Under the pieces are notes generated by a model. The model saw only the letters and a list, made by a program, of their open reading frames with translations. It searched no databases and was not told the DNA's origin. A DNA stretch of 64,000 nt from assembly GCF_016808335.1 (NCBI RefSeq), contig NC_053142.1, positions 3,113,802-3,177,801 on the forward strand, read 5' to 3'. Made by a program: the position numbers and the translations under genes. This DNA is from Panicum virgatum (lineage: Eukaryota; Streptophyta; Magnoliopsida; Poales; Poaceae). Shown here in pieces: positions 3,650-39,757 of this stretch; position 1 is the first letter of the stretch; each line of letters starts with the position of its first letter.

Positions 3650-4602
3650 TGTTAGATATAATGGGCTTGGCCCATTAATATTTAATAAATCAATAAAACT
3701 CTATGGTCATTAAATGCCTGGTTATTTTGAGCCGTGACAATATTGCACATTAAATGGCCGGTTAATTTGAGAAATTGAGCCGTGGCGTGGCTGGTGGGTG
3801 GTGGACAGACGTGGCTTTATTTTTGCCATTTGCTCACCTTGAGTTGGGAGTTACCAAAATTAGTGGCAATCACAGGTTTGATGATGGGAGTTTCTTGTCT
3901 TCTCCCTTACTCTACCGGCACTCCATTGCGCGACTAGAGGCTCATGGCCTTCCGCCTCCAGCAGCACGACTCCTCGCTTTCCTCCCTTCTTTGATATAAA
4001 TCGAAGAGGGCTCCTTCAGTTAAATTCTCTCTGGCAATCACCACAATCCAGCAGCACTTTGAGTTCTTCCCGTTCCGTCTGTTGCGCGCACACGAGATGG
4101 AAGAGTAGGCCTCCGGAACGTCTCCGTCCGCTGGGTTCACCTGCTCGGGTGAGGACGGCAATCACGTTTTTAGGGAGTGTCGACGGCGGCACGGCTACTC
4201 GCTTCCGTTCCTGTTCCCGATGTTGGCGGCTTTCGTTCCTGTTCCTGGCGGCACGACATCGAGCAGGCGATCGGCACTGCAACATATCTGCACGGCATCG
4301 AGCGGGACGACTACATCAACAAAGCACCATGTCGCTTTCGGGTGCTTCCGGCACTGCCGTTGGGTATGCTGATCTTATTCTCAAAGTTGCAATCTTTGTG
4401 ATTAGCGTAAACACTGTGATCGACATGCTTTATTTGAGAGATTCTACATGTCATGCATTGCTGGTTAGCACTAGTTTCATATTCATGATGTCTTTGTTGA
4501 TGAATTTGTTTGATAAGCACATATGATATCATATTCATGTATTTCTTGCTTGCATCATATTTATGGAATAAATTAAACATGAAATTGCCTAGATTTCTAA
4601 CA
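3650..4602 (+). repeat. Copia 5' LTR
   Basis: This 953-bp LTR begins tgttagatataat and ends gatttctaaca. It matches 10771-11725 with scattered substitutions and small indels of a few percent, consistent with a fairly young insertion. A TATA-like box gatataaatc lies at 3993-4002. Confidence 0.95.
3993..4002 (+). promoter_or_regulatory. TATA-like box of copia LTR
   Basis: GATATAAATC occurs in the middle of the 5' LTR and at the same place in the 3' LTR (11114-11123). Position and sequence fit the U3 promoter. Transcription has not been shown. Confidence 0.5.
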
Positions 4603-4650
4603 ATCCAAAAATGTGATTATGGGCAATTTTCCTCTGTTGGCTTTGCGAGT

Positions 4651-5580
4651 ATGTTGAAACCACCGCCGTTTGAGGGCACTCACTATGAGAGATGGCGCCA
4701 GAAAACTATTCTGTGGTTGACCTCTATGCGTTGCTTTTATGTGGTGACTGAGATGCCTGCCACTACTGTTCGAACCGTTGATGAGCAACGTCAGTTCGAT
4801 CATGATGACACCAATTGTAGAGGTGGCTTGCTGAGCGTCATTGGAGATTCTCTCATTGATGCATATATTCAGTTTCCGACTGGTAAGGCTATTTGGGATG
4901 CTCTTGAGGCCCGTTACGACATTTCTGACGCCGGTTCTGAGCTATACGTCATGGAGCAGTTCCATGACTATCGGATGGTTGAGAACCGTCCGGTAGTCGA
5001 ACAGGCTCATGAAATACAGGCACTGGTTAAGGAACTTGAGCTGTTTGGGTGTGCGCTTCCCGACAAGTTTGTGGCGGGTTGCATGATTGCAAACCTGCCA
5101 CAATCTTGGACTGACTTTGCAACTTCTCTGGAACATAAGAGGCAAGAGTTTAGCACTGCTGAGTTTGTTGGGACTCTTGATGTTGAGGACAAGGCTAGAG
5201 CAAAAGATGTCAAAGGCAAGAAGATCGTTGAGGGGAGTTCTAGCGCACATGTGGTGCAAAAGAATCATCCCAAACCACATAAAAAAAAATTTCAGCAAGA
5301 GCTTAAGCAGAAGCCCTCCACTTCTTTCAGGAAGGGAAAAAAGATGACCAAGGAAAAGATGAACTATTTCACCTATGGCAAGACTGGGCACTTTGCTAGA
5401 GAGTGTCCTGAGGCTAAGTGGAAGCCTCCTCCACAGAAATCAGTTAACATTGTTGAGACTGAAGCAGCTACTTCTGGGTATGGTAAATTTTTACCTTCTA
5501 CATTTTCAGTTTGTTATTCACCTGATTGGTGGGTTGATACCGGTGCAAATATTTATGTGTGTGCTGATTTTTTCCTTGTT
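4651..5580 (+). pseudogene. Copia gag and start of protease, defective
   Basis: The frame from ATG 4651 matches copia gag: a FEGTHYERWRQK-type N-terminus, the UBN2-like capsid region around 4850-5200, a basic linker and a nucleocapsid zinc knuckle. The knuckle is damaged: at about 5362-5374 both leading Cys of the C-x2-C-x4-H-x4-C pattern are Tyr (TAT), while His and the last Cys remain. The frame continues into the protease motif WWVDTGAN at about 5527 and then shifts near 5575-5590. The frame is open upstream into the LTR, so there is no normal leader. Confidence 0.85.
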
Positions 5581-6800
5581 TTCTTTTTACAAGGCCGGGC
5601 GGGCTGCCTCCTTGCTGATGGGGAATGGAGCGCGTGCAGCTGTTCATGGTGTTGGTACGGTCGATCTGAAGCTTACTTCGGGAAAGACCGTGCAGCTCAA
5701 GAACGTGCATCATGTCCCCTCAAAGAAGAACTTGATTAGTGGCTCCTTACTCTGTCGTGAAGGTTATAAGATAGTATTTGAATCTAATAAATGTGTTGTT
5801 TCTAAATATGGAACTTTTATTGGAAAAAGGCTATGAGAGCGGAGGCTTGTTACGCTTGTCTTTAGTTGATACTTGCTTTAAATCTGTGAACAATGTGGTT
5901 AGTAATGTTGAGACTAATATTTGGCATTCGAGGTTATGTCATGTTAATGTTGGTTGCATGTCTCGCTTAGCTAGTTTGAATTTAATTCCTAAATTTGATA
6001 TGGTCAAAAATTCAAAGTGCCATGTGTGTGTTGAAGCAAAACAACCTCGCAAGCCTCACAAGGCTGCTGCGGCGAGAGAGTTGGCACCACTTGAATTAAT
6101 TCATTAAGATATTTGTGAGATGAATGGAATATTGACCAAAGGTGGCAAGAAATATTTCATGACACTTATAGATGATTGCACTAGATTTTGCTACGTGTAT
6201 CTGTTAAAAACAAAGGATGAAGCGTTGCATTATTTTAAGATCTATAAGGCTGAGGTAGAAAACCAACTTGAAAAGAAAATTAAACAGGTGTGTTCTGATC
6301 GCGGTGGAAAATATTTCTCAAATGAGTTTTCTGAGTTTTGTGCGGAGCATGGAATTATTCATGAGAGGACACCGCCATACTCACCTCAATCCAATGGGAT
6401 TGCTGAGAGGAAGAACTGTACTCTAACTGATTTGGTTAATGCCATGTTAGAAACTGCGGGACTACCTAAGGAATGGTGGGGTGAGGCGATCTTGATAGCA
6501 TATCATGTCCTGAATAGGGTGCCCACAAAGAACAAAGAAATTACACCATTCGAGGAATGGGTGAAAAAGAGATTAAATCTCTCCTATCTGCGAACATGGG
6601 GTTGTTTGGCAAAGGTGCATTGGCCAATTAACAAGAAGCGAAAACTTGGACCCAAAATCGTTGATTGTGTCTTTCTTGGTTATGCTATACACAGTGTGGG
6701 TTATAGATTTTTGATAATAAATTACAAAATACCGGATATGTATGAGGGTACTATCACGGAATCGAGAGACGCAACATTTTTGAAGATAAAATTCCCATGA
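5520..6800 (+). pseudogene. Copia protease and integrase, defective
   Basis: After a frameshift near 5580 the protease tail and the GAG-pre-integrase zinc domain follow (H-x-H region at about 5922-5945, C-x2-C at 6019-6030). An in-frame TAA at 6105-6107 cuts the protein just before the integrase core. The core at 6120-6800 shows the DDE triad: Asp in LIDDCTRF, Asp in CSDRGGKY and Glu in ERKNC. A second frameshift near 6785 separates it from the RT part. Confidence 0.85.
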
Positions 6801-8050
6801 AAAATACACCTAGCATTTCTAGTCATGATTCTATTTCTTCTGAGGATGTCCATGAACTGATAAATAATAATGATTTTGAAACTCATGTGGAAACTCCTGA
6901 GGAGGACAATAATATAGTCACTCGAAAGAGCAAGAAACAAAGGGTTACAAAATCCTTTGGTGAGGACTTTATTATATACCTCGCAGAAAACACTCCCACA
7001 ACCATTGCTGAGGCATATTCATCCATTGATGCTGACTTATGGAAGGAAGCAGTGCAAAGTGAGATGGATTCTATTATGTCTAATGGGACCTGGGAAGTGG
7101 TTGATCATCCTTATGGATGTAAACCCGTGGGGTGTAAATGAGTGTTCAAAAAGAAAAGGAGGCCTGATGGTACAGTTGAGAAGTACAAGGCAAGGCTAGT
7201 TGCTAAAGGCTATACACAAAAGGAAGGAGAGTATTATTTTGACACTTATTCACCAGTTGCCCGACCGACCACCATATGTGTGCTAATATCCTTGGCTGCT
7301 TCACACGGTATTATCATTCATCAGATAGATGTTAAGACAGCTTTCTTGAACGGAGAGCTTGAGGAAGAGATCTATATGAATCAGCCTGATGGATTTGTGA
7401 CAAAAGGTCAAGAGGGTAAGGTGTGTAAGCTGCTAAAATCCTTATACGGCCTAAAGCAATCACCAAAGCAATGGCATGAGAAATTTGATAAAACTTTAAC
7501 ATCAGCCGGTTTTGTGGTGAATGAAGATGATAAATGTGTATACTATCGGTTCGGTGGAGGCAATGTTGTCATTTTGTGCTTATATGTGGATGACATTTTG
7601 ATATTCGAGGAATAATGTCGATGTGATCAAAGAAGTGAAGAATTTTCTGTCTAACAATTTTGAGATGAAAGACTTGGGTGAGGCTGATGTTATTCTTAAC
7701 ATTAACCTTTTGAGAGAAGAAGGAAATTGTGGGGTTACTCTTGTGCAGTCCCACTATGTGGAAAATGTGTTAAATCGTTTTGGGTACGATGACTGTTCAC
7801 CAGCTCCAACTCCTTATGACCCAAGCGCGATTTTGAGAAAAAATCGAAAAATTACAAGAGACCAACTAAGATATTCACAAATAATTGGTTCTCTCATGTA
7901 TTTGGCTAGTGCGACCAGGCCTGATATCTCGTTTGTTGTGAGCAAGCTAAGCTGGTTTGTGTCAAATCCGGGAGATATTCACTGGGGTGCTCTTGAGAGA
8001 GTACTACGCTATCTAAAAGGCACAATGAGTTATGTCATTCACTTTACCGG

Positions 8051-9722
8051 TGTAAGGATCGATGGATCAAGAGGGGGGTGAATTGGGCCTTTTTCAAATT
8101 TCTAAAACAATTAAAGCAATCTTAACCTATGCAATGCTAGTAAGACTCAATTCACCAACCGGCTAACTAAACAAACTACACAAGTTAACAAAGATATGAA
8201 ACTAAGCAAGGTAGAGCTAAGTTATGATCTCTAAGGTCAAGCACAAGAATAATTGCAAGAAAGTAAGTGCTTGAAATGAAAGAGTGGACAAGAGACAACT
8301 GGATTTTTTTCCCGTGGTGTCGATGTGTTGGCACACACTTCTAATCCACGTTGACACTCACTAAGAGTCTTGTCACCTTCCATGTCACCGAGACTTGGGC
8401 GCTCACTAAGAGTCTCCGTTCACCATCCCGGCGTGGTGGAGCTCAAGCCACGTACAAACTTCTTCGGGCTCCCACAATCCTTGGCAAGCTCCGGAAGAAA
8501 CACCTTCAATCACCAAGATCGCTTAGGTGCTGCCAATCACCAAGAGTAACAAGTTAGGGCCTTCACTTGAGAAAGAACCGATCACCAAGAACGGATGCAC
8601 GTAAGCTTCTCTCTACTCAAGTCCTTAGTCTTGCTTTTTGAAAGATTGAATGAACAAATGTGTGTAAGATGAAGCTCAAGGTGGCTCTCAATAATAGTAT
8701 GGTGTATGAATGTTGCCTGGTGTCAAGAGAGAGCAAAATGACCCATTGGAGGGGTATATATAGGCAGCTCACACGAATAGAGCCGTTGGAGAAAAGCTGC
8801 CAGAAAACTGCTTAACGTCGGTTAATCCGACGAACCTCCAATAGCCAGCGTCGGTTTAACCGATGAATGTAAACTGTCCATTTGGAAAACTAGCCGTTAC
8901 AACTTGGGCAGATTAACCGACGTATCGTCGGTTTAACCGGTGAGTGTAGTTGTTCACTGATCAACTGAAAAACCAAGTCTCTGGACAACTGCACCGACGT
9001 TAACTCAAATCCATCGTCGGTTTAACCGGTGAGTATAACTTCTGAAATCCCTGAGAAAACCAACTCACTGGACAATTGCACCGACGCTAATTTCAAACAT
9101 CATCGGTTTAACCGGTGTATAGAACTTGAAACACCATGAAAAAACCAACTCTGGACTAATGCACCGACGTTCATTTCAAACATCGTCGGTTTAACCGGTG
9201 TATAGAACCTGTCCAGACTCTGATAACTGCGTTTAACCGACGTATAGAAAAGTTGAGTCGTCGGTTAAACCGGTGTATAGACTTTTTCTGATTTTGCCTT
9301 TTCTGATTTGAGTCTTGAGTGAAATCCAAATATTCTTGAGATATAAGTTGAAAACCACTTATTTGAATTTCTTTAGAACCTGAGTGACCATAGTGTGCAT
9401 CCATTTTTAAATGACCATGTCCATGCTCAAGTTATTTGACCTTAACCCCTCTTAATAGTGCGATCACTACAAAATTATAAAACTTATACTAACCTAAGTG
9501 TCCTTCTCAACCTTACGACACTTAGGACTAGAAAGATCCTTAGTCTTGTTATATATTTGAGTTGAATACCGAGATCGCCTTTTTGAATAACGAAAATGAG
9601 GGGCCTCTTTTGACATATGACCAAATGAGCGATAATGATTCATTAAGCTGCACAAACTTATTAGTCACAATAATGGTTGTCATTAATCACCGAAACATAC
9701 CTAGAGGGCCTAGATGCTTACA
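8051..9722 (+). mobile_element. Solo LTR nested in copia RNase H
   Basis: The insertion starts TGTAAGGATC and ends GATGCTTACA (TG...CA, inverted TGTAAG/CTTACA). The 5-bp duplication ACCGG is present at 8046-8050 and 9723-9727. It is 1,672 bp with no coding domain, primer site or second LTR, so it is best read as a solo LTR left by recombination. A strong TATA-like run gtatatatagg lies at 8753-8763. Downstream of it, about 8810-9280, there are at least six copies of a CGTCGGTTTAACCGGTG-type motif. The GAGGGGGG(T)GAATtGGG head resembles those at 12838 and 15261. Confidence 0.88.
8753..8763 (+). promoter_or_regulatory. TATA-like box of solo LTR
   Basis: GTATATATAGG is followed by the same agccgttggagaaaagctgcc phrase also seen after the TATA-like run at about 16025 in the related LTR fragment. 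Conservation of this block between two copies supports a core promoter. Confidence 0.5.
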
Positions 9723-10217
9723 ACCGGGTATCCAAGGGTACTAGAAGGTTATTGTGATGCTAATTGGATTTCTGATGCTGATGAGCTGTATGTCACAAGC
9801 GGATATGTGTTCCTGCTTGGAGGTGGCGCTGTTTTCTGGAAGTCTTGCAAGCAGACTATCTTAACGAAGTCTACAATGGAAGCAGAACTAACGGCATTGG
9901 ATACTGCTGGCGCTGAAGCCGAGTGGCTACGTGAGCTCCTTATGGATTTGCCGGTTGTTGAGAAACCTATACCGGCTATATCCATGAACTGTGACAACCA
10001 AACCGTGATAATAAAGGTTAACAGTTCTAAGGACAATATGAAATCTACAAGGCATGTGAAAAGGCGCCTGAAGACTGTCAGAAAATTGAGAAACTCCGGA
10101 GTAATATTATTGGACTATGTCTATACATCTAATAATCTGGCAGATCAGTTTACTAAGGGTCTATCACGCAATATGATAGAAGGTGCATCGAGAGAGTTGG
10201 GCTTGAGACCCACTTGA

Positions 10218-10770
10218 AACCATTCCATAGTGGTAACCTGTCCTTTGTGATCGGAGATCCCGTGAATTAGGGTGGCGAAACAAGCTAGTGGATGGCTGAG
10301 GGAGAGACTCCTTAGAATAAAGTCTAGCTCAATTGAGATGCATTGTCTCTCCAATACTGCTAGGGAGGTTGATTAAATTCTTAATGTGATCCGAGTGGCT
10401 TGAAAAAGCAGGGATGTTGTCCTACAGGGCATTCTAAAAGGAACACACCTATATGAGTTCGATTGCTAGTCATAATCTATGAGATGTGGCTAATCTCTAG
10501 ATACTCATGAAAAAAGGCTAGGAAGTATGACTTATAAGCTTCAAACAGAGGGAATGCTCTTTGCAGCCTAGTATCAGTTAAGGATTTTAGCGAAACTCAT
10601 CTCACACAAAACTGTCAATTCAAGGCTTTGTCCATTGATCAGTTGTGGCTGAGTGTAGCTATTATTATAGATGGATGTTCAACTTAACAGTCTTCATCGA
10701 AATACTGGTATATAAAAGGATTGTGGTTATGAGAACTTTCTTGCGTTGTACCCTAGAGTTTGGTGTGGAT
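10218..10770 (+). other. Copia 3' untranslated region
   Basis: The region between the RNase H stop and the 3' LTR has no open frame of note. The last bases before the LTR (gagtttggtgtggat) are a poor polypurine tract. Confidence 0.6.
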
Positions 10771-11725
10771 TGTTAGATATAATGGGCTTGGCCTATTAAT
10801 ATTTAATAAATCAATAAAACTCTATGGTCATTAAATGGCTGGTTATTTTGGGCCGTGACAATATTGCACATTAAATGGCCGGTTAATTTGAGAAATTGAG
10901 CCGTGGCGTGGCTGGTGGGTGGTGGACGGACATGGCTCTATTTTTGCCATTTGCTCACCTTGAGTTGGGAGTTACCAAAATTAGTGGCAATCAAAGGTTT
11001 GATGATGGGAGTTTCTTGTCTTTTTCCTTACTCTACCGGCACTCCATTGCACGACTAGAGGCCCATGGCCTTCCGCCTCCAGCAGCACGACTCCTCGCTT
11101 TCCTCCCTTCTTTGATATAAATCGAAGAGGGCTCCTTCAGTTAAATTCTCTTTGGCAATCACCACAATCCAGCAGCACTTTGAGTTCTTCCCGTTCCGTC
11201 TCTTGCGCGCACACGAGATGGAAGAGTAGGCCTCCGGAACGTCTCCGTCCGCTGGGTTCACCTGCTCGGGTGAGGACGGCAATCACGTTTTTGGGGAGTG
11301 TCGACGGCAGCACGACTACTCGCTTCCGTTCCTGTTCCCGACGTTGGCGGCTTTCGTTCCTATTCCTGGTGGCACGACATCGAGCGGGCGATCGGCACTG
11401 CAACATATCTGCACGGCATCGAGCGGGACGACTACATCAACAAAGCACCATGTCGCTTTCGAGTGCTTCCGGCACTGCCACTGGGTATGCTGATCTTATT
11501 CTCAAAGTTGCAATCTTTGTGATTAGCGTAAACACTGTGATCGACATGCTTTATTTGAGAGATTCTACGTGTCATGCATTGCTGGTTAGCACTAGTTTCA
11601 TATTCATGATGTCTTTGATGATGAATTTATCTGATAAGCACATATCTGATATCATATTCATGTATTTCTTTCTTACGTCATATTTATGGAATAAATTAAA
11701 TATGAAATTGCCTAGATTTCTAACA
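10771..11725 (+). repeat. Copia 3' LTR
   Basis: This 955-bp LTR starts tgttagatataat, ends gatttctaaca and is followed at once by the target duplication AGAAC at 11726-11730. Confidence 0.95.
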
Positions 11726-11730
11726 AGAAC

Positions 11731-12059
11731 TGAGGAGTAGCTCATCCCATAGCCTGTAAACTCAATCCAGTCGCGGTCGTAGGTGTTTATCAATAGTCAG
11801 GGAACTTCTTTTCTAGATAACAAAGAATTCAGGATGCAACGTAATTATTTGCATGGTCATCCAGATGAGTAGCCTATGTAGAATTGCTGTTTGCACGATA
11901 GGATCGAATCATATAACAGGTCTCAGAATCATGCTTTCGTTAGAATGCATAGTAAAAGTTAAAAATAACATTGTAGAGGTTGAAACTTATAATATTGATT
12001 ATCCTAATTTAGTATACTTTTCTACTAAAAAAATTAGTATACTTTTTTAAACTTGAGCT
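11731..12059. other. Unassigned intergenic DNA
   Basis: AT-rich sequence between the copia target duplication and a minus-strand copia remnant. No gene, element end or repeat was recognised. Confidence 0.4.
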
Positions 12060-12670
12060 CACTCATGCGCATTATATTCATTTCAACTCACAATTTGGAC
12101 AATGTTTCATTATAACCTGATCGTTTCATTTCAACTCCCTCATGCACATTGATGGAGTTCATTGCTACAAACTCCACCTTGACATGAATTCCATCTTGTA
12201 GCAATGAAGTATCATCAATGAACTCACTTTAATAATAAATAATCACCAACGCCAAAAGTCACTGGAAATTGAACTTTACCACAAATTAAGCTTGAGCATA
12301 ACTCAAACTTAGCTACAGGAACATGCTTAGTCCTCATATCAGCGGGATTTTCATGAGTACTTAATTATCTTGCATACTTTAACATCACCTTCAGCAACAA
12401 CGCCTCGAATAAAATGATATCTCGCATCAATGTTCATTGTTTTTTGATGAAACATCTGATCTTTAGTAAGATAAATAACACTTTGACTATCACAATGTAT
12501 AGTAATGCAAGAAGAAATCTCGCAAAACTCCGAGTATAAACCTCTCAATCAAATAGCTTTTTTACAACATTCAAAAATAGCCATATATTCAGCTTTAGTG
12601 GTGGATAAAGCAATAGTAGCTTACAAACTTGCTTTCCAACTAAAAACACAACCACCAATGGTGAAAACAT
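12060..12670 (-). pseudogene. Copia RNase H and pol tail remnant, minus strand
   Basis: Read on the minus strand, 12670 to about 12260 encodes a decayed copia RNase H: ALSTTKAEYMAI near 12600, then IHCDSQSVIYLTKDQM, DARYHFIR and NPADMRTKHVPVAKFELC. The frame is broken in several places (for example near 12540 and 12340). The sequence after the pol end, down to about 12060, fits a 3' untranslated region. It differs from the copia element at 3650 and is a fragment of another family. Confidence 0.75.
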
Positions 12671-12675
12671 AACCT

Positions 12676-12837
12676 GTGAGACACCACCTCTTAACCAAGA
12701 AGGATATTAAGCCACGACTCATCCGTTGGATCCTACTCCTCCAGGAATTTGACTTGGAAATCAAAGATAAGAAAGGAGCAGATAATGTGTGGCAGATCAT
12801 CTTTCAAGAATGCAAGTGCAAGGATCAGACTTTGAAG
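12676..12837 (+). pseudogene. Ty3/gypsy RNase H fragment
   Basis: A short plus-strand piece encodes [18 protein letters not shown] followed by KDKKGADNV, the end of a Ty3/gypsy RNase H. The next expected residues (VADHLS) are found one base out of frame, so a single-base deletion lies at about 12788. It stops where LTR-like DNA begins at about 12838. Confidence 0.7.
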
Positions 12838-13365
12838 GACCGGGATAGGCGACCAGAGAGGGGGGAGCGAATAGGAGCCCTCAAAAAATTCTCCTCGAGA
12901 GAATAAAGCCTGTCTCAAATTCACCTCTCTTTTAACCACCAAGGTGACACAAGACAACTCGTGACAAGCTCATCCTAGAAACGGTTAGAGAAAGCTCGAC
13001 GTAAAGTGGAAAACACGCGAAAAGTAATTTACTCGACCAAGACACAAAACGAAGCAGAAGCAATGAATTAGCAAAGTGCCAAAAAACTTACACTTAATCA
13101 AGTATACGATGAAATAACCATGATTAGCACAACTGGAAGTCAAGCGGAAGCCAAACTTATCCAAAAGACCGATCAAGAAACTTACAACAAAAATTAGAAC
13201 TAATTACTATAAGAGAGTCATCTTAGCTAAGCTTGAAAAGGCCTAAAAATAATTAGCAAGATCAAGTACTAATTAACTCAAAGTAATAACTACACAAGAA
13301 ACTGACCATAATTAGCAAGAGAAAAAACTAATTATTTTTGCTTAAACAGGTGAGCAGGAATTAAA
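12838..13365. repeat. LTR-like segment, disrupted
   Basis: Starts gaccgggataggcgaccag, then a G-run and gcgaataggagcc. This layout resembles the heads of the solo LTR at 8051 and the LTR fragment at 15261. The remainder, up to the Helitron at 13366, is AT-rich and non-coding. Ends were not resolved, and the continuation past the Helitron was not recognised at 23052. Confidence 0.35.
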
Positions 13366-13559
13366 TCTATACTATAAGAAACGAAAACAATTGAAATAAC
13401 CTCCCACCAAAAAAACTTACCCCCACCCTTTCACAAAAGACTACTAGTCACGACGAAAACTAACTAACGACGAAAACAACGTTTCCGCGATGTTTCTTCC
13501 TTCCGCGGCCTTTTTTTTCTCACCGCACCTCTCCGCTTACCCGCCGCGATACCCACCCC

Positions 13560-14235
13560 GCTGATCACTCCCTCTTCACCGCATCCCACCCGAGGTACGG
13601 CTGCGTCCTCCCTCGGCGCCACGGACGGGCATACGCGCTGCCGCCGAACGGACTCCCTGCTGCTTCAGCTCCCTGCAGCTCTCCTCTGCCGCCGCGTCCC
13701 TCCCTTGCGACGTGGGCAGGATCTCCCTGGTTGTCATCAGCCGCCGCATCCATCGCGGATCGAGCCGGTGGAGTCCGAGCTCTTCTCAAAGCAGACCCTC
13801 CCCCTTCCCCACTCCGCCACCCGGGCCTGCGGACCCTGGACATCAGAGCCAGGGACGATTCCTCGCCATCGCCGTCGATCGAGGCCCTGAACGTCGCCTG
13901 TGGCCGCGTCGTCCGCCTTGTCCCGTCCTGCGCCGTTTCGATCCCCCACCGCCGCCGCCTTCGTCCCGATCCGGCGGCGGGGATCGATCTTTCGCGCTTC
14001 CCCGAGACGACCGCCTTCGCCCAGCCGGATGGCTTGCCATCTGTGGGCTCCCGGGGCACCTCTCACCACGTGTTACGCGCGCACGCCGGTGCCCTCATCT
14101 CCAACCGCAGATTCGGCCGCCGTTCCGCGAGCTGCCGAGCTCCACCTCTTCGAAGCCGAGGCCTCCCTTCCGGCGCCTTCATGGATTCGCCATTCGCCGG
14201 GTCGTCGCCCGCGGCGAGCACCACCACCAGGTACG
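13560..14235 (+). other. GC-rich first-exon-like block in Helitron
   Basis: This block is far more GC-rich than its surroundings and open in several frames, so frame length alone means little. An ATG at 14180 opens a Ser/Thr-rich peptide beginning MDSPFAGSSP and runs into a good donor (CACCAG|GTACGC, exon end 14229). It looks like the 5' end of a captured grass gene. Parent gene not recognised. Confidence 0.35.
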
Positions 14236-14579
14236 CCCGCCCCCTTCTGTTCCCTTCCTGCCATTGAAACCGAACACTCCAAACCCTAATGAAGCCATTT
14301 GTAATCGGAATCGGATCTGACCCAATCACGAATATAGGCATGATACCTATCAACTTTGAGTTTTTGCAGCTCCAGTTTTGCTGATAATGGTTTGAATTGT
14401 AATCTTGTTTTGTGACCCGTATGAGTTGTCTGTACTGTTGCTGTTTCTAGCCGCTGGTCTAATGTGCTCGTTGATATGCCTCTGAGATGTGGTGCGGTAG
14501 CTTTTAATTCACGAGTGCTTGGGTCGACCTAGGTGTGTCAACAACAAGCGGGGTTCGTCAGGAATGAGGAGCCGAGGAC

Positions 14580-14660
14580 ATGTGGGAGCAGCAGCACAAT
14601 CTCGGCACCCAAAAGATATACTCTCTCTGCTCCGAGCTTGACATTCTGTTTTTCCTTAAG
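14580..14660 (+). pseudogene. ABC1/UbiB-like kinase exon fragment
   Basis: The 27-codon stretch MWEQQHNLGTQKIYSLCS... ending FFLK, followed by GTTGGT, resembles the N-terminal exon of plant ABC1 (aarF/UbiB) atypical kinases, where W-E-x-Q-H, KIY-x-x-CS and FFLK recur. The expected LGG before FFLK is altered. In the same frame upstream, 'QE' is followed by TGA at about 14564, so the copy is broken. No other ABC1 kinase domain (ATP-binding or HADPHPGN region) was found nearby, so it is probably a lone captured exon. The family call rests on remembered similarity. Confidence 0.45.
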
Positions 14661-15097
14661 GTTGGTGTACTTCTTTTGGACAGTATCTTGCATAGGTACA
14701 TCAGTGCTTTCTACCATCCTACTAATGTTGGCCTGTGTATATGTTTTTTTTTTCCTGTATTTTAACTTAACATCGCATACTTGCCTGGGAGGCATCACTT
14801 ATCAAATTCACCAATGATCACACACAAATGCTTATCAAATTAAGTAGGCATCATATTGCTGAAGTTTTTGTGCAAAGATCATGCTGAAGAAGCTCTAAAG
14901 TTATTACGAGTTGCTTCCCGTTTTTATATAGACAGAACCAACTTCCTGTTTACTTCGTGTTTTCCTCTTTCCCTAGGGAAGTGTCGTTTGAGCGAAAACT
15001 GGCACTAAGCACTGGCTGTTATTGGATCATTTGATTCAGTTGTCAAAAACTGGCTTCAGCAAGGCAACACAGCCGTTGGATGAAATCTATGCATTCT

Positions 15098-15216
15098 GGG
15101 CATGTTTGGATGGCGTCCTAGAAACTTGCCTGTGCCAGGCAGTGCATCCAGGCGACGATTTCGTCAGCTTGGGGCCAGGATCGCTGCCTGGTCCAGGGTC
15201 GCATCCAAACAAGCCC
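15098..15216. mobile_element. Small MITE (119 bp)
   Basis: Terminal inverted repeats GGGCATGTTTGGATG (15098-15112) and CATCCAAACAAGCCC (15202-15216) match at 14 of 15 positions. TCT flanks both sides (15095-15097, 15217-15219) as a possible 3-bp target duplication. It resembles the GGGC-TGTTTGG MITEs common in grass introns. Superfamily not assigned. Confidence 0.75.
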
Positions 15217-15260
15217 TCTTTGCAATATTGAGGCTTCCTGCTGTGGATAAGAAAGCAGGT

Positions 15261-16510
15261 TGTAAGGATCACCGGGTGTCCGACCCTAGAGGGGGAGGGG
15301 TTGAATAGGGTCGCTAATCGCTTTTTAACCTATGGCTCAAACTACTTGCATAAGATAAACCTAACACGTCCTACACATGCTAGTTATGACTAAGGTTTAT
15401 CTATGCTACTCTCTACTTACCCCTAAAAGACTTGCAACCTAGCCAAACCTAATCAAACCAACTAGGAAAGTAAAGGTACGCTAGATAGAGTAAATGCGGA
15501 AACGTAATACGGTAAGTAAAGAGGTAAGTGCAAGAGGGATGCAAACTCCCGAGTAGACACGGTCATGTAACGTGGTTCGGCACAAACGCCTACGTCCACG
15601 GGACACCGAGGCTCTTCCGATCACGTCTTGCACTACGCCACCAAGGCGATGCCGGCAAGCAATGGCAAGTGCCCACAAGACACTAAGTCTCGTGCACCGC
15701 CACCGTCTCTCTCGGTCACCCGGCCGAAATCCACTACGGAGCTTCTCCACCAAGGAGGGGGCCTCCTCTTCCCCCGCACAAAGTGTCGTTGCCACTCCAC
15801 ACCAAGACGGAGGGTCACACGACGGATCACAAGTTGCTTGCCGCAGCAAGGCTTTCACTCAAGTTAGTTCTCTCAAGAACTAAGCCTAAACAAGCACTAA
15901 GCACTCTCACAAGTGTGCTTAAGCCTATATGATATACAATAAAGCACTATGGTGGTTGGATATGATCTTTGGCTCTTGTATTCTTCCTTGGTCTCCAGCA
16001 CTCTCAAATGACCCGGCCTTGGGGGTATATATAGGTAGCATAAACAAATATAGCCGTTGGAGAAAAGCTGCCAGATAACTGCGTAACGCCGGTTAATCCG
16101 ACGTACCCCAAAAGCCATCATCGGTTCAACCGGTGTATGTAAACTGCTATTTGAAAAACTAGCCGTTAGCAATCAACCGGTGTATTGCCGGTTTAACCGA
16201 TGTAATCAACCGGTGTATGTAATATTAGCGTCGGTTTAACCAGTGAGTGTATCTTCTTCACTTTCCTCCAAAAACCACCTCTGGACAACTGAACCGATGC
16301 AATTGACCGATGCATCGTCGGTTCAACCGGTGTAGGTATTTTCCTCGGTCTTCATCTGCCAATGCACCGACGTATATAACTTCCGTAGCGTCGGTTCATC
16401 CGGTGTAAAACCCTAGCCCGCAGACCTTCTCTGTGATTGCACCGGTGAGTTCATTTTGCCCTACGTCGGTTTAACCGATGATAGCAAAATGCCTCAATTC
16501 TTGTCTCTTG
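15261..16510 (+). mobile_element. LTR fragment related to the 8051 solo LTR
   Basis: It starts TGTAAGGATC, as the solo LTR at 8051 does, then has a GAGGGGGAGGGGtTGAATAGGG head. A TATA-like gtatatatagg lies at about 16025, followed by agccgttggagaaaagctgcc. From about 16085 to 16490 it carries a series of CGTCGGTTTAACCGGTG-type repeats. No matching ...CTTACA end was found, so the 3' part seems lost. Upstream parts differ enough from 8051 to be another subfamily. The right boundary is approximate. Confidence 0.6.
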
Positions 16511-19500
16511 GACCGATGATAGCATATGGTATCGTTCTGAAGGAGAAATTGTGGCCACTGATTGCTCAAAATGAACCCTCGTTGATCTCCTTACAGTTGG
16601 TAATTCTATTGTTCTTTGAATTTTCATCAAGATTAGTTTGTTATCCAGCAAAATGACAGGAGAAGTGGATGTAGTTCAACATCTCATGGACCTTTTTCTT
16701 TACTTTTTAGCATCTGATGAGTTGGTACATTATGGCACCTACTTTTATATAAATTGTGCTTGGGGAATTTAGTGATTAGTGGTCACAAAACTCTGGTACC
16801 TTAGTGTAGTCATTGGCATTAGATTTTCTGCTTTTTAAGATCTTTCGATGCTACCCCGAAACTGAAATTCTTTGTATTAAGGTTTACTTAACACCTTTTT
16901 TTCACCTGGCAGCTTCCCAAACTAGCAGATGATGACTGCTTAGCTGCCATGGATCTTCTTCAAGCACTGCGTGTAGAACATCTCGTCAGGTCTAGCTCTA
17001 GCCTTTGCCTCATTAAACTGGGGTTTATGTGTGACCTTTTTTTATGTCCTTTAGATTAATCAGTACCCTCTTATCAAAATGGTGGTGGATGTAGATGGGC
17101 TCACAAGTAGGTTAATAAATACTATTAACTTTGTCGATACAATCATTCTGCATAACTTGGAAGGATCACCTTCTTGTAAATAACCAAATAGTTCTGTATA
17201 TGACATATAGATGATATCAAGACTGCTAATATATGTTGGCAGACTTTATTTTATTTACATTTACAGGTGAGGCTGTGCAAACCTTTGGACTCCATTATTG
17301 TTTACTGGCACAATTGGAGGATACATGGTTACAAGAGAACGGTACCCAGTTTCCATTTCTATCTTTTGTATTAAATAATGATTCGGCTTTGGTATAGCCA
17401 TCTCTCTATTGTTGAAACTGTTCTGTGCAATGTACTATTATCTGAATTTGCATCTATTGGGTTGATAAGGGGAGAGCCATAGTTACTGAAAATGATAATA
17501 TTCTATTCTTCACTCTTTGCCGAAATATAATGACATCGACATGGTGGGCGATAGTAATAAGATGGCAGGACTGCATATGTAGTCATATAATGAAAAGTTC
17601 TAGCTGGTGAAAGAGAATTTGTATGATTAAAAGATTTATTTTGTTTGGGCGTGGCACATGAGGTTGGGTAGCCTGTGCTTCATTCTGTTTTTTTAGAAAA
17701 AGGAATTGTTAAAAGGAATCTGTGATTCTATCTGTGCTTCCACTGATATTATTCTTGAATTATAACAGGTGCAAGGGAAGTACTTGCTCAAAAGTTCTCC
17801 ATTCTAGCTTCAAAACAGTTCCAACTCACAATAGTAAAAAACATACTCTTATTTTCCCTTTTCATATTCATATATTAAGTAAAGGTTTTTATTTCCAGAC
17901 TGGGCTATGTGACATGGCAGTAATATATAGCCAAACAGTTCAGCTGTTGAAACTTAGTGTTTGGCATTTGATTCTGCACCTTATGGAGTATATATGTAGT
18001 TTATTTATTAGCATCCAGATGAAGTCATCTACATAAGTACACTAAATTTACATGATAGATAGACTGGTGTAATCCTTTTATTTGTTTTTGTAGAGAAGAC
18101 TAAAATTAGGGATGACTTCTGACATCGAAATTTTTGGCTGTTATGCTAGGCATCTACTGTTCCATAAGACTTTTGTTATTTTTTTGATTTTGAACAGTTC
18201 AAACTCATCATTGCAGCTTGGAGGGCTGAGTCGTGCAACAGACAAGAGCATCTTCCAAGCTATTGATTTCCTTTTGGTTGTATTCCTATATAGCTGCTCC
18301 TTGATAGAGTGAGTGTATAACTTCTCTTGTTTGCGTGAAAAGCATATATACGTTTGCCTTTATTATTGATCTGAGTATATCATGATCCACTTATCATTTT
18401 GCTCCCACGCTAGGATTGATTTCAATACTTGATGTAGTCTAATAGCATTTGTAAAACATACAGTAGGATTTCATGATCTTTTTCTTATGCAAACCAAGTG
18501 AATAACAGTATTGGCCTCATTTTTATATGCTCTATTCGATCTTGTGATCTCAACACATATTTTCTTATGCTAATTTTATATGCTCCATTTGATCTTGTGA
18601 CATTTTTTTCCTTCATCTTTCGTCCGTCGTCGGGACCCCGCCCCCGTCATTATGGGAAAAAACCACTTTTAAAACTTTGACTACAATACATTCACCTCAC
18701 ACATTAGCTAAAAAACAAAGTAGCAGATTGATATAACTACAGTGAACTTTGGGCAAAGTATGATCTACATTCTTTCAGGTGCCATCTCTACTATTCTGAT
18801 TTGTTGTATGCTGCTCCAGGTGTTGGTGATATAAGCTCTCGATAGATAGAAAAGATCAACATGCTCCAGGTATGCATCCCTTTGTTTGTTTCTCATACTT
18901 ACCTCTGACTGTTGTGAGGGAAATAGGGAGTCATATGTCTTGATCATGTTGTTCAAAGGGTGCTCTTGGCCAGTCGATTATCCATTCCCCTCTCATCCGG
19001 GATTCTGCTGAAGGAAAACTATGCTGCTGAATTTGACAACAAGCAGGTCAGATAGCTGACAAACACTTGTGTTTTCTTGAACTATTGAGGTTATAAATAG
19101 TTTCACGAGTGATTTATTCTTTGGGGGCAACACCAAAATGTCCCAAGTTTCGCTTGCAATTCTAAGGTGTGCACACTTACTAGATCATAAAAAATAAAAA
19201 GAACTATAAGATAGATATTACAAGCTGTTTCAGTTAACTACATTTGTTCTGAGTTCACACACCGATCATTGTCATGTCTTGAATAGGAACCTAAGTTGAT
19301 ATAACAAATTGTGGAGAAAATTAGTTACAGTACTTTCTATGCATTTTCCTGCACTTGATCTCAGTACAAGAAAATTTAGGATGAAAGTATCTGATTTATC
19401 AGTATACCGATTCATCAGTATATATTAGTTTGACTCCAGAATATTAAAGTCTATGTGCATTTATTTGATTGAGTTATGCTTTTAACTATTACATATTAGT

Positions 19501-20829
19501 GACTATCCACATTCTGGCCACCTAGACTCTAGCTGAATGATAAAGCATTTTTTTTGGGGGGTGGGTGCATGAAAAGGAGCAAAAGGCAAAGGATATGAAG
19601 TAGGGCAGAATGAGGCTACTCTGCCCATCGGACGGGCCGACAGGCTACTCCTTTCCAGCACTCTGCCGCCCGCTACGTATCTCTATTCCGTTGGCTGGAA
19701 CTTTCTCGGCGCCTCTGCTCTCCCATTTCCTTTATTTCCTTTGTGGATCCTCGCGCTTCTTCCAGACGAAGATCCTTCCGTCCTCTGACTCGCACTTAGA
19801 GCAAGGCTTATAACCTCGCCTACTTGCCGGCGAAAAGGAGCTCCAGCTCAGATGGGTGCTGCCTATTTTATTCAGCAGCTGTAGCTCATTTATTGCATGA
19901 AAGCGACGGGTAACCAATTGAAAGCCAAAGGAGCGGCGCTGGCAAACTCAAATAGTGCATGCGCCCGCTGAATGTCGCCGTCTCGCCAGACGCCCGCTAC
20001 CTTCTCTCTCATGCCTTCTCTTTCTTCCACATCAGTATTTCGCCCGCTCGGCGGTCATTATAATACCTGCTCTTACGCTTCCAGCCGCGCTGACCGACGC
20101 CCAACCTGCCGGCGCCTCCTCCCGCCTTTCAGGCCCTCGCCCCTGGCCACGGTACACCTCTTCTACCTTGGGTAAAGTACGAGTTGTACCCTGCTGCTTG
20201 TATTACTAGATCCATCCGTATCAATTTGTGATTCTCCCCTCTCACGCGTTAATACATCCGGCTCATGTCTTGTTCAATTTACTTAGGGATCCAGGTCTTG
20301 CAACGCTGCTTCAGTGACTGCCATCCCCTGACTGGTGGTTCTGCAACTTTTTCTATTTACTTAGGGAACTAGGTCTTGCAATGTTGCTTCAGTGATGGCC
20401 ATCCCTGTCTGCTAGTTTTGCAACTGCTCGTCTCCTGTTAGGGTAATCTGCCCCATGGTGAATCCTACATACTTTGCTAGAGTATTATTTATATATACTG
20501 TTCTTTACTGATGTTCACTCCAGAACAAAGTAAATAAAAAAAGAACAAGCCAACTTCTCTTCCCTATGCTAACTGCACATTTTTCCTTCCTTTTTTTTTC
20601 ATTTTACCAAATCTGATCCTAATACTCATAGATCTACAAAGATATAATAATGCATTCCTGTTGCCAAGAAAGTTTACCATATCATCTATGGGAGCTTGCA
20701 GAACCATTCATAGTTAGAGCCCCATTTAATACGTTGAGATATCAAGTAGAAGTAACCACGTTTTCCTATTCGATTCTGCTATGCAGATTTCAGTCGCTGC
20801 TGTCTTTGGTCACAGTTCTGCTTAGAGAC
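16511..20829 (+). other. Helitron interior with short exon-like pieces
   Basis: Mostly AT-rich, intron-like DNA. Small open stretches flanked by splice-like sites include 16513-16600 (VLKEKLWPLIAQNEPSLIS, then GTAATT), 16913-16989 (LPKLADDDCLAAMDLLQ..., CAG before and GTCTAG after), about 17268-17340 (AVQTFGLHYCLLAQLEDTW), 18205-18309 (LGGLSRATDKSIFQAIDF) and about 18958-19046 (VLLASRLSIPLSSGILLKE). They do not join into one frame, and I do not recognise the parent genes. 19600-20210 is a GC-richer block with no convincing product. Confidence 0.35.
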
Positions 20830-21262
20830 ATGGTTTTAAATAGCGGGCTATGATAAATAGCGGCATATTTTTTCCCGAGGCTAAGAGGCTATAGCGGGCT
20901 ATAACAAATAGCGGTTTACTACTAAACCATAAAAAATACAAGTAATAAATACACAAAAATATAGTAATTAGCGAATTTCATAAACATAAATATGTTTCTA
21001 GAGCTATGAGAACATTACTTAAGTTGATAATGCAATAAAAATTATATAATCAAATATTTATTTGTCCAAAAGACCAAAACAGTAGCACTAAGCTAAGGAT
21101 AAAGGCTATAGCGGAGCTAAAGCTATGCTATTTAGCGCGGCTATAGCCCAATTTAGCATCCATAGCTGTCATAGCGGCACAAATACAAATTGCGTAGCGG
21201 GAACCCTCTAAAAAGGCTATAGCGGAGCTATAGCGAGGCTATAGCCCGCTATTTAAAACCAT
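20830..21262. mobile_element. Foldback DNA element with TAGCGGG repeats
   Basis: A perfect 22-bp terminal inverted repeat ATGGTTTTAAATAGCGGGCT(AT) lies at 20830-20851 and 21241-21262. Inside, the subterminal motif GGCTATAGCGG/GCTATAGCC recurs at least eight times in both directions. The 433-bp length, no coding capacity and subterminal repeat clusters mark a non-autonomous DNA transposon, hAT-like in style. No convincing target duplication was seen. Confidence 0.75.
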
Positions 21263-22950
21263 GGACCACTGGATATCATCTCCTTACATTAGCAGGTTTG
21301 GTCTAAAATTCCAATTCCATTTAACCAAAAGAAAAAAAAACATATACCTCCTGTTCGCTTTGGTTGCTACCTTGCAATTTGTTGCTGCTATGCTTGTGAC
21401 GTATACACGGCTAATTCAGTACCCTCCTCCCTCTATTTGTTTTTTAGTGACAAATTGCTTGCTCCAGCGAGGACCAGACTGAGTCATACAGCTTTTCTGG
21501 ATCGACATTTCTGCCCCTGGTAATAATAATACAAAATTGCCGATCTCCTTAATTGGCTCTTCATATTATCTATAGGTTTCTTTGTTACTGTGCTGGTAAA
21601 TAGAAATGTCTAATTTATGGCTAATTTGCACGTATTTACATTCTGCTGTATTAAGCCATAGTCCATATGGTCATACAGTTATATCTTCACAATAGTTGCT
21701 TAAAAAAAATTGGCACCAATAGCAGGCATATATTGTCTCCTATTTACAGACTATATCTTACAACCCTATCTGCTCAAATCACCATGATATATGCAAAAAT
21801 TATCTCTTTCCTACGCCCTTCAAATTGGAACCCCTATGCTAAATCAGGATGATGAGATGGAAGCAGCTTTGGCAAGACTACAACAAGCCATTATAGCAAA
21901 ACCAATAACATCCCTCCCACCTGTACCAACTACAGATGTTAAAGCCATGTTTAAACACCATTATCGTGCATCACCCCAGCCAGTAGAAATGTCCTATTTT
22001 CCACCAGACTTCATCCTGCAATTCAATGATAAATGAAGCTATGACACAATTCTTAGCTACCAAGGATCTTAGACTACAACTAGCCATTAGAGCTATATTT
22101 GAAGGTTAGCTGCAGATTTTCCTTTTTCTCTAAAAAAATGAGAAAAGAACATACTCCTCTCTCTCTGGTTATATCAATATGTACTATAGAATAGTTGAGA
22201 CATGAGACAAATCTACGTCCACTGCAGCTGAAACTGAAGATGGAAGAAAGGTGAACGACCCGCCCACCTTCAATGGCTACACATATTCAGGTGAAACTTC
22301 AGACGATGAAGACCCAAATGACGCCTACTATTATGCAGGTAAGCAGATTTTTCATCAAATGTAGCATTCAACACCAATTTACAATGCATAAACTATATTG
22401 ATACCTAAATTGTATCTGGCACAATTTCAAGACTCAGATCGCGAGCAAAGAACTGGTAGCTTAATGCGCCAGGTACGTATCTGAACTACATATTTAAAAT
22501 CTACTGCTTTTTTCCAAAAGATTCAAAAGAAAAAAAAACACAAACCCGATGTTGACCTATTACTTTGCTAGGTTAGAATCTCAAGATCTTCGCACATGAA
22601 GCAAATAGTGAACAGAAACGTTCTCAGGAATCATCTTCTGCATCTATGTGTTTGTATGTGTGTGTATACAACTATGTACGTATGTGTGTCTGCATGCCAT
22701 GTAACTGTGTATATCAAGATGTATGTAACCAAACTGTCAGCACACTATGCAAATTCTGGATGCTTCTTATTTGTAACTACTTATCTAACATCCCATTACC
22801 TGTGCCAAATATGATACTACTCTACACAAATCAGATATAAATAATTTCTACTACCTTATACAACTGGATATCTCATTCTCCACAAATATTCATCGTATAA
22901 TATAGACTACAACTTCATATCAATCATACAAAAATCTACACGATGGCGAG
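21263..22950 (+). other. Helitron interior, unrecognised exon-like pieces
   Basis: Contains an open stretch at about 21836-22036 starting MLNQDDEMEAALARLQQ and ending in ILQFNDK-stop, and another at about 22230-22338 (EDGRKVNDPPTFNGYTYSG..., acidic tail, then GTAAGC donor). They are plausible exons of one or two captured genes but match no family I can name. The remainder is AT-rich. Confidence 0.3.
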
Positions 22951-23025
22951 CCAAGGCGCGTGCAAAGTACTCATTGCAACTAAAATTTAGTGTGGTTATT
23001 TGTTTATAACACTATTCTTTAACAC

Positions 23026-23051
23026 GTCCGTGCCGCACGGGCACCTACTAG
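23026..23051 (+). other. Helitron 3' terminus: hairpin plus CTAG
   Basis: Stem 23026-23032 (GTCCGTG) pairs with 23036-23042 (CACGGGC, one G-T pair) around loop CCG. It is followed by acctaCTAG at 23051 and a flanking T. This matches the expected termination structure for rolling-circle transposition. Confidence 0.75.
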
Positions 23052-23139
23052 TAAACGTGAGATGAACAAAGAAATTTGCTCACTGTGCTGTCCCGTCGAC
23101 TTGCTCTTGGGCTGCTCCAGCGGTGGGTAGCTAGCCGGG

Positions 23140-33761: not shown

Positions 33762-36700
33762 TGTAACACCCTAAGTTAAATTTCAATATTTAATAATAAA
33801 ATTAATTGGCTTTATTTAATTTTCTAGGATTTAATTTGCTTAGTCTTGCATTTAATCCAATTTTGTTTCATAAGTAATTAAAATTTTCTCTAGGTTTAAA
33901 CTTGTTGTTGCATTCATGCTGGTGCATGGCTTTATTTTATTTGAATGCATAGGAGTTGAATTCAAATTTTAGTTTGAATTCAAATAGATTTAAGTGGTGT
34001 TTGAAATAGAAAAGAGAAAGGAAAATAGATAAACCAAACCGGACCCAAAACCTAGACAAACCAACCCGGCAACCCGAAGCGGCCCAGCCCGCGTTTCCTT
34101 TCCTTCCCTGGCAGCCCACCTTTTCCCCTCACAGCCCAAGCCAGCTCCTTTTCTTTCCTTCCGCGCGACCCGTGCTCCTCTCCTCCGCTTCAGCCCAGCA
34201 TCGCCGCACGCGTCACCCCGCTCCGTAGCAGCTCCCGCTCCGGCTCAGCCGCGTTCGTGCCCGTGCGGCTGACCAGTGGGCCCCGCTTGTCAGCGTCACC
34301 CTCCCGCAAACCGCGCGCGTGTCGTCTCCAGCGTGGCCGTTCCCCAGCGCGCGGCATGGCCCAGCTTTCCTCTCCACGCTCAGCCCGGACCTGCATGGCA
34401 GCCTGGCTCACGGGATGCGGATAAAATCGGCGTTTCTCCGGAGCCTGGTTTCAGTAATGCAAGATGTTCGCAAGGTGTGAGGTGAAAAAGCTTGTGCGCA
34501 TGCAAATATAGGTAACCAATCAGCATCCGTCAGCAGCTAGGCTAGTTCAATGCAGTGATCCAATCAGGATGGCGTTGCATGCGTTGAGCCTGGGCAGTGG
34601 GAGCCTGGCTCGCAGGCACCGGCCAGGCTCTGCCCAAACGAGAACCAATCAGGCCTCGTCTTCCCCGCGCCCCTGCCTCCGCGTTCCGTGTCCTGTGCTC
34701 GCTCGGCCCCGCTGCCAGCTCGGGCCCACACACCAGCGCCCCGCTCCCCGCACGCGCGTTCGCCGTTGGCCGCACCCCGCTGACAGGCCGAACCCACACG
34801 CCAGGCCCGTCTTTCTCGGCCGCGCAACACCCGCGCAGCAACAGCCCCGGCCGCGAATCACGCCGGGATCACGCCCGCAGAGATCCCCGGCGCCCTTCTT
34901 TTTAGACCCCGGCCTTCCCCCACTGCGCCCATCTTGACACACCACCACGGCCGCCGCCCAGAACCCCAGCACGCCGCTGCCCTTATCCTGCTCCAAGTAG
35001 CAGCAACAGCCCCTCCTTCCCCGTGATCGACATGCGCAGCAGCAAGCCGTCGCTCTCCTGCTCCAAGCACCATTGACTCCTCCCTCAACCTCCAGCACCC
35101 CAATGCGTGACCCCGGCCAGGGCTCCCCAACGGCGGCGTGACGGCTCCCCGCTACAGCTTCCCTCAGCGTGGCGCCCATTCCTCGGCATTGATGCGCGGG
35201 TGCCGTCCCTCCTGACTGCCACCGCTAGCTCCTCCCGACGCAGCCCAGGCCACCGGACTTCAACGAGTTTATCCGTGGAGTCCAGAAGCTCGGGGAGCCT
35301 CTGCAGGGACCACCTCTGCGAGCTCTGCGTCGACCTTGCCGCCAGAAGGAACCGCCGCCGCTCGACGTCGCTCATTGTTGCCGTTCCAGAAAGTCCCAGT
35401 TCAAGCTCTCCACGTCCCGCGATCAGTCCGCGCCGTCGCAGCTTCCCCCAGTGCCCTAGGTGAGATCCCCATGCCGAGAGCTTTCCGTTTTGCCGCTTCC
35501 GGGCGTTTTCCGTGGAGCGTAGAGCGATCTAGGGTTGTAGTATAGAGCTCTGGACACACGTTCATGGAGCCTGCGTTCATCATGTTCTGGTCCTGTTCGT
35601 TGCCATCCAGAGGTAGAAGAAGGCCTGTGAGCCCTTGGATCTAAGATCTACGGTCCATATTAGATGTGATGCATACCCCTTCGTGTGGACCCGGTTCACC
35701 GTAGACCACAGTTCTTTCTTCTCTGGTCCATGGATCCTATAGACTGAGTTCACAGTATAGTACACAACATATCTCCACATGAAGGCTGCTGTATAGATGC
35801 ACTTTTGCAATTCAGACCCTGTCCTTAATTGATATTGCGGCACAACTTTTTTGTGTCATGCTAATATTGCCTTCTAGCTCCCGAATACTTTGTTAATCAC
35901 TGTTTTGACCCTAAACCTTGTACGTAAGACACCCCAGAACATGTTCTGATGCAAAGTTTCGGGTTACTATTCATGCTACAGTATGCCCATTACAGTTTAA
36001 TCCCTGTGATTTGCGCAGTATTTCAGATAAACCCTTGTATCTTATAATGCTTATATCTTTTTATTTATAGCTCCGTTTTTATTGGTTCTTGCGTCCACGC
36101 GATCGTTGTAACGCGTAGAATAGTTCTAGCTTAGTTTTGTTTGCTGTTCTTATGTACTGTTGTACTGTTTCTTAGTGTTTTCTCTTGTTTGCATGTATGT
36201 ATATGATTGTGGACTTGTTTTGGCGTTGCGATCGTGAGTAGATGTTGAGCTACCAGAGAAGCATCAGTACCAGTGCTAAGAGCCATCTTTAGAGTAGTTT
36301 GAGCAGCAGGAGAACTTTTGAGGAAGGCAAGTATAACATGAACAACACCTATCACTTTAAATACATTTTCATACTGCATTTTAATACTGTATGCCTATAA
36401 GGACTTTCCTAGCCACTTTATATCCTTTATATATATCCTTTGGGTTGCATTTTGGTTAGTTGTGCTAGGTGCCGTGCTATAACACACTTGGTCCTTTTTA
36501 ATTAATTTGATTAATGGTATATGCAACTTAATTCTGAGAGTGGCCCTCTGTGTGGCTTGAGTGGCTCACGTCTCGTTAAAATTGGTTTTGTTAGAAATAT
36601 GGTTTAGGGGGCCAGCACGGTGCTTAGTGCTTGGTTGGCCACTCTCCATAAGGATCGGTTCGTAGAGCGACAACCTGGGACAACAGCGCTACCACAAGAC

Positions 36701-37672: not shown

Positions 37673-37675
37673 GAG

Positions 37676-37688
37676 TGGTATCAGAGCC
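37676..37688 (+). other. Primer binding site of Tekay-1
   Basis: TGGTATCAGAGCC begins 3 bp after the LTR end and is complementary to the 3' end of initiator tRNA-Met. The identical site is at 59161 in Tekay-2. Confidence 0.85.
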
Positions 37689-39712: not shown

Positions 39713-39757
39713 CCAGCCCAGAATCTCGGGATGAGATTCCTATAAGGGGGTAGGATT

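What the first reader, a model, noticed from the sequence alone, without database searches (positions are those of the whole stretch)
13366..23051. 9.7-kb Helitron with all three structural hallmarks and captured exon-like cargo
5' A|TCTATACTAT, a 3' hairpin (23026-23042) and CTAG|T are all present, and the enclosed DNA has several short splice-flanked open stretches and an ABC1-kinase-like exon rather than a transposase. This fits a gene-capturing, non-autonomous Helitron that may be undescribed in this species. The ends are seen in the sequence; the capture of host pieces is inferred.
Basis: partly seen in the sequence, partly recalled or inferred. Interest (0 to 1): 0.75.

Follow-up and report, generated by a model that had tools for sequence, protein, structure and literature searches.

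The report
Gene-capturing switchgrass Helitron, mosaic cargo
This is a 9.7-kb rolling-circle jumping element in what is very probably the switchgrass genome; it carries broken pieces of several unrelated plant loci and sits in a site that is still empty on the matching chromosome of the other subgenome.

Summary
The window lies in a 1.13-Gb grass assembly, very probably switchgrass. The homeologous site on C16 is empty: flanks 13306-13365 and 23052-23105 join there, 112/115 identical, without target-site duplication. Other loci share the ends, starting at 13366 or stopping at 23051, but not the interior.

No Rep-helicase was found, so it is taken as non-autonomous. Parts of the cargo are traced: 14463-14801 to the ABC1-kinase gene on C5/C14; 14908-17031 to a gene-like locus on C9/C18; 14188-14448 to another C9/C18 pair; 21836-22337 is a decayed gene whose relatives carry DUF4283. 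It is a mosaic: 17105-19060 is 94% identical to a C1 copy, and the last 398 bp are 98% identical to a C17 locus; neither shares more in what was compared. A 1.26-kb repeat and a MITE interrupt the C9-type fragment.

A well-supported new copy of a known kind. Less ordinary: 13 of 21 copies carry a GC-rich block 200-800 bp from the 5' end, in about nine unrelated sequence groups.

The parts
13366..13578 (+). Helitron 5' terminal region shared with family copies (first 69-213 bp)
   Evidence: 20 of 20 fetched loci match from about 13366; similarity ends at 13434 to 13578 depending on the copy
13560..14240 (+). GC-rich block after the 5' end (GC 0.69 in 200-bp windows 13566-14165); donor mostly unidentified
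   Evidence: in 13598-14187 only short matches, within 13834-14064, at 78-91%
14188..14448 (+). Fragment matching a homeologous pair C9:57573408 / C18:67208542 at 88%
   Evidence: part of it (14185-14368) also matches 15 other loci at 73-80%
14463..14801 (+). Captured ABC1K fragment: end of intron 1, exon 2 (14533-14660, splice sites kept, frame broken), start of intron 2, then sequence from beyond exon 3
   Evidence: blocks 77-83% to the C5 and C14 genes; C11:54744105 matches 14447-14891 at 93%
14908..17031 (+). Captured fragment of a gene-like C9/C18 locus, interrupted by two insertions
   Evidence: 14908-15097 (73%), 15217-15261 (89%), 16522-17031 (93%) to C9:9297850-9298900
15098..15216 (.). 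MITE-like insertion with inverted ends (GGGCATGTTTGGATG) and TCT at both sides
   Evidence: the donor locus has a single TCT at the site (by eye)
15262..16521 (.). Inserted grass repeat with CCGGTG-type internal repeats, absent from the donor locus
   Evidence: parts match L047 (C10) at 96% and window 8736-9031 at 73%
17105..19060 (+). Interior segment 94% identical to a stretch on C1; pieces at 68-97% in further loci
   Evidence: C1:36064231-36066119
20829..21263 (.). MITE-like unit with perfect 23-bp terminal inverted repeats
21836..22337 (+). Decayed gene whose relatives carry DUF4283: N-terminal part with an in-frame stop and a one-codon gap, middle missing, C-terminal part; a further DSDRE piece near 22431 seen by eye
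22654..23051 (+). 3' segment 98% identical to a C17 locus whose upstream sequence differs
22964..23051 (+). Family 3' terminal region
23026..23042 (+). 3' hairpin GTCCGTG-CCG-CACGGGC, 9 bases before the end
   Evidence: commonest family form CACGTGC-GTGCC-GCACGTG

Best explanation
A non-autonomous Helitron of a multi-copy family. A Rep-helicase supplied in trans nicks at the TC 5' end, copies one strand to the hairpin and CTAG 3' end, and inserts it between host A and T (mechanism inferred from the Helitron class). Its interior was assembled from DNA-level fragments, introns included, of at least three host loci plus a DUF4283-type gene, and its 3' segment is shared with another family locus. 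It entered this site after the two subgenome progenitors split (order of capture steps is inferred).
For: Exact empty homeologous site without duplication. Loci share only the ends; 18 of 22 examined 3' ends, window included, finish in CTAG|T. No RepHel domain in the ten stop-free forward pieces scanned, and no stop-free frame over 267 aa in the element. Donor loci with introns retained. Mosaic joins at 22654 and between the C1-like segment and the 3' part.
Against: The hairpin is weak alone and differs in register from the commonest family form. No full-length second copy of this exact element was found, so transposition with the present cargo is not shown; the genome searches scored only part of the candidates. 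19050-20820 was never searched (no answer). 13598-14187 has no clear donor.
Confidence: 0.95

Rival explanations
1. A decayed ordinary gene or gene cluster lies here, and the Helitron-like ends are coincidental.
For: Splice-flanked exons in sense orientation.
Against: Pieces map to C5/C14 and to two places on C9/C18; the homeolog lacks the whole 9,686 bp exactly.
Confidence: 0.01
2. The C16 homeolog lost the element by precise deletion, so it is older than the subgenome split.
For: The captured ABC1K piece is only 77-83% identical to the C5 and C14 genes, so the cargo may be old.
Against: Loss exact to the base, restoring A|T, is unlikely; cargo age does not give insertion age. Flank distance is 0.04-0.09.
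Confidence: 0.03
3. Cargo was inherited from an older multi-gene Helitron lineage, and this copy captured nothing itself.
For: C11 and C1 stretches share parts of the cargo at 93-94%.
Against: No locus with the same set of pieces turned up (candidates partly scored); 21270-22653 had no close copy. Compatible with the main account apart from timing.
Confidence: 0.35

Closest known systems
Non-autonomous gene-capturing maize Helitrons (helA/helB; PMC3288121, passages read)
   Same: CTAG 3' ends, gene fragments in most copies, stepwise capture, related copies sharing ends or blocks but not whole interiors
   Different: Different species; here a repeat and a MITE sit inside one captured fragment. 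Terminal sequences were not compared
Lolium GIGANTEA-fragment Helitron Lp-psGI.1 (PMC2702305, passages read)
   Same: 7.5-kb non-autonomous grass Helitron, 5'-TC, CTAG|T, A|T site, 16-bp hairpin, fragments of several genes, sequences with the uninterrupted site
   Different: Different hairpin sequence and cargo
Rice Mothra Helitrons (PMC4683698, passages read)
   Same: Non-autonomous copies with shared ends; a putative mother element with an RPA-like gene. A locus here with the same 5' end has an RPA-C ORF (L018)
   Different: Mothra is about 2 kb, tandem-repeat rich and high copy

Membership tests
Helitron (rolling-circle DNA transposon) | 5' TC end | tested here: met
Helitron (rolling-circle DNA transposon) | 3' CTRR end with hairpin about 10 bp upstream | tested here: met
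   hairpin weak alone
Helitron (rolling-circle DNA transposon) | Insertion between A and T without target-site duplication | tested here: met
   Empty homeologous site
Helitron (rolling-circle DNA transposon) | Terminal sequences shared with dispersed copies whose flanks are unrelated | tested here: met
   (flanks after CTAG compared by eye)
Autonomous Helitron | Rep-helicase gene | tested here: not met
   No stop-free frame over 267 aa; no such Pfam domain in the ten forward pieces scanned
Gene-capturing Helitron | Fragments of unrelated host genes with donors elsewhere | tested here: met
   ABC1K: ten exon-wise matches each on C5 and C14, two of ten at each with a stop inside, perhaps intron edges. 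C9/C18 locus: 1,051 bases read, full gene not read
Helitron (rolling-circle DNA transposon) | Actual mobility, circular intermediate | not testable with these tools
   Needs bench or population data

The most novel reading that the evidence does not exclude
This Helitron family repeatedly acquires GC-rich gene 5' ends (promoter and first exon) just behind its own 5' terminus, so each copy carries a ready promoter reading into its mosaic cargo; with exchange of 3' ends this would make the family a promoter-first exon shuffler.
Probability: 0.25. Interest if true: 0.6.

Novelty: new member of a known kind. Interest (0 to 1): 0.33.

Why it matters
It is a base-exact Helitron with an empty homeologous site, located donors and visible join points in a polyploid crop, hence a good test case for stepwise capture and end exchange. 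[quoted passage not shown] The kind of element itself is long known.

Tried and rejected
Pfam scan of ten forward stop-free pieces gave nothing credible; its E 0.003 hit (polysaccharide deacetylase) lies on the piece that matches the DUF4283-type proteins far better. PDB searches were empty or chance. A homolog search restricted to the first 60 residues of the exon chain found nothing; the ABC1K link came only with real ABC1K proteins. At E up to 10 many of those proteins also gave weak hits elsewhere in the window (for example 116 rows in the bin at 61,600), so the count of hits proves nothing; the E-values do (3e-7 against 0.04 for the next place). Rfam: no match. L051 (C5:61.11 Mb), taken at first for the donor of 17101-18454, shows no clear gene and holds a Helitron 3' end, so I dropped it as parent. 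No RepHel-bearing family member was identified; of ten ORFs from relatives, L018 had RPA-C, four were retroelement-like, one MuDR, one had a weak odd match and three none. That the C9/C18 locus looks like GCN1 is recalled only; Pfam and PDB did not confirm it. In one search rows whose match ended before query base 70 were dropped before the count of 22. Literature: the 3' end string was in 0 papers; 'Helitron' with 'switchgrass' gave 31 papers, of which I saw 12 titles and abstract starts; some searches were broader. I make no claim that the family is unpublished.

Full report
Setting. The window is C7:3113802-3177801 of a 1,129,937,113-base assembly. C1 is 56,991,866 bases, close to the 56,994,302-base contig of a Panicum virgatum protein named PVAP13_1KG355405 (P0004), and C7/C16, C5/C14 and C9/C18 behave as homeologous pairs. 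Switchgrass is therefore very likely; the name itself is inferred.

Ends. The 3' hairpin folds at 23026-23042 but is unremarkable against shuffles. What proves the ends is comparison. A query with 99 bp of upstream flank matched 20 of 20 fetched loci from 13353-13371 on (the loci had been chosen by a 5' match, where 40 of 53 candidates were scored). A query with 60 bp of downstream flank gave 40 matches, 40 of 129 candidates scored: the window, two matches to flank only, and 37 others, of which 35 stop at position 169-179, where 172 is base 23051; the other two stop at 158 and 189. Of 22 examined 3' ends, 18 (window included) end in CTAG|T and go on into DNA that looks unrelated by eye; 4 (L015, L042, L044, L045) have a mutated end. 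The commonest family hairpin is CACGTGC-GTGCC-GCACGTG; this copy has changes on both arms and pairs in a shifted register.

Empty site. L033 (C16:4352042) matches window 11930-13366 at 91% and then continues at 23052 without a gap: 112 of 115 columns across the joined flanks. The same homeolog runs on to 23138 and then 45863, so the 22.7-kb LTR nest beside the Helitron is a separate insertion, also absent there. Substitution distance of the five collinear blocks is 0.036-0.086; a sixth, 71-bp inverted block elsewhere is 0.12. The published progenitor split is about 6.7 million years (PMC7886653, passages read), which bounds the insertion.

Family structure. Against all other loci held at that point, at E up to 1e-8, the element matches only in 13366-13578, in 22654 or 22964 to 23051, and in three places inside the inserted repeat at 15262-16521. 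Three of 20 loci fetched by their 5' end (L015, L022, L027) also have the 3' end 7.1-8.8 kb downstream in the same orientation, and L020 a partial one (at most 10 kb was fetched). So copies share ends and differ inside.

Cargo. (a) ABC1K: the 120 plant ABC1K proteins listed (best 120 of 567) match 14574-14666, best E 3e-7 in the 64-kb window, next best place 0.04. The genome has the multi-exon gene on C5 and C14, ten exon-wise matches each, two of ten with a stop inside. The captured stretch runs from intron 1 through exon 2 (14533-14660 against a 129-base exon; 106 identical of 136 aligned columns, 15 of them gaps) into intron 2, and then to sequence from beyond exon 3, so exon 3 is missing. 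Splice dinucleotides remain; the reading frame is broken. (b) 14908-17031 corresponds to a C9 locus with counterparts on C9 and C18; exon-like and intron-like parts are collinear, at 73%, 89% and 93% in three blocks (1,051 bases read). The gaps between blocks are a MITE with TCT at both sides where the donor has one TCT and a 1.26-kb repeat; that they came after capture is inferred. Resemblance of this locus to GCN1 is from recall. (c) 14188-14448 matches a C9/C18 pair at 88%, and part of it 15 further loci at 73-80%. (d) 21836-22337 is a decayed copy of a gene whose relatives carry DUF4283; 18 other loci match parts of 21850-22514 at 70-83%. (e) 17105-19060 is 94% identical to C1:36064231-36066119. 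A C1 3' end on the same strand lies about 4 kb further; that it ends the same element is inferred. The 1.5 kb before it shares only the final 80 bp with the window. (f) The last 398 bp are 98% identical to C17, breaking at a GT-rich stretch at 22654; about 6 kb upstream on C17 show no further match, and no 5' end of the searched form was seen there. ABC1K, C9-type and DUF4283 pieces lie in sense orientation to the element.

Reading. A mosaic, non-autonomous Helitron: insertion and foreign origin of the pieces are shown by sequence; rolling-circle movement with a trans-acting Rep-helicase, and the capture route, are inferred from the class. Stepwise capture of this sort is described for maize (PMC3288121, passages), and a close parallel exists in Lolium (PMC2702305, passages).

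Side observation. Of 21 copies (20 fetched plus window), 13 have GC above 0.6 at 200-800 bp from the 5' end; of 552 control 600-bp windows further in the same loci, 9.2% do. At the nucleotide level the 13 blocks fall into about nine groups: L009/L016/L018/L027, L020/L025, and seven single ones, of which L014 resembles L013 and L022 has 126 bp in common with L015. The eight other copies (L010, L012, L013, L015, L017, L019, L023, L024) miss the cut, though L010 lies at 0.59 and L012, L015 and L017 have a later block. Copies are not independent and control windows overlap, so I give no p-value. It may mean that gene 5' ends are captured next to the Helitron 5' end, or that an old family segment diverged.

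Verdict. It is a new, well-documented member of a known kind.

Noticed in passing
L009-L028 and window 13566-14166: 13 of 21 family copies have a GC-rich block 200-800 bp from the Helitron 5' end, in about nine unrelated sequence groups.
   Followed up: partly
L018:6451-7686: A locus with the same Helitron 5' end carries an ORF with Rep_fac-A_C (E 2.6e-23), as in RPA-bearing plant Helitrons.
   Followed up: partly
L030 / C17:39968112-39968512: Locus sharing only the last 398 bp (98%) with the window element; join at a GT-rich stretch.
   Followed up: yes
23139-45862: 22.7-kb LTR-retrotransposon nest next to the Helitron, absent from the C16 homeolog; repeats 23785-24869/44541-45623 at distance 0.055.
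   Followed up: partly
3650-11726: Copia-type LTR element upstream, repeats 3650-4603 and 10771-11726 at distance 0.033.
   Followed up: no
33762-42589: LTR pair 33762-36574 / 39758-42589 at distance 0.024.
   Followed up: no
L051:1474-2054: Very long simple-repeat tract with an inverted Helitron 3' end at its edge.
   Followed up: no
20829-21263: MITE-like unit with perfect 23-bp inverted ends inside the Helitron; no clear target duplication seen by eye.
   Followed up: no
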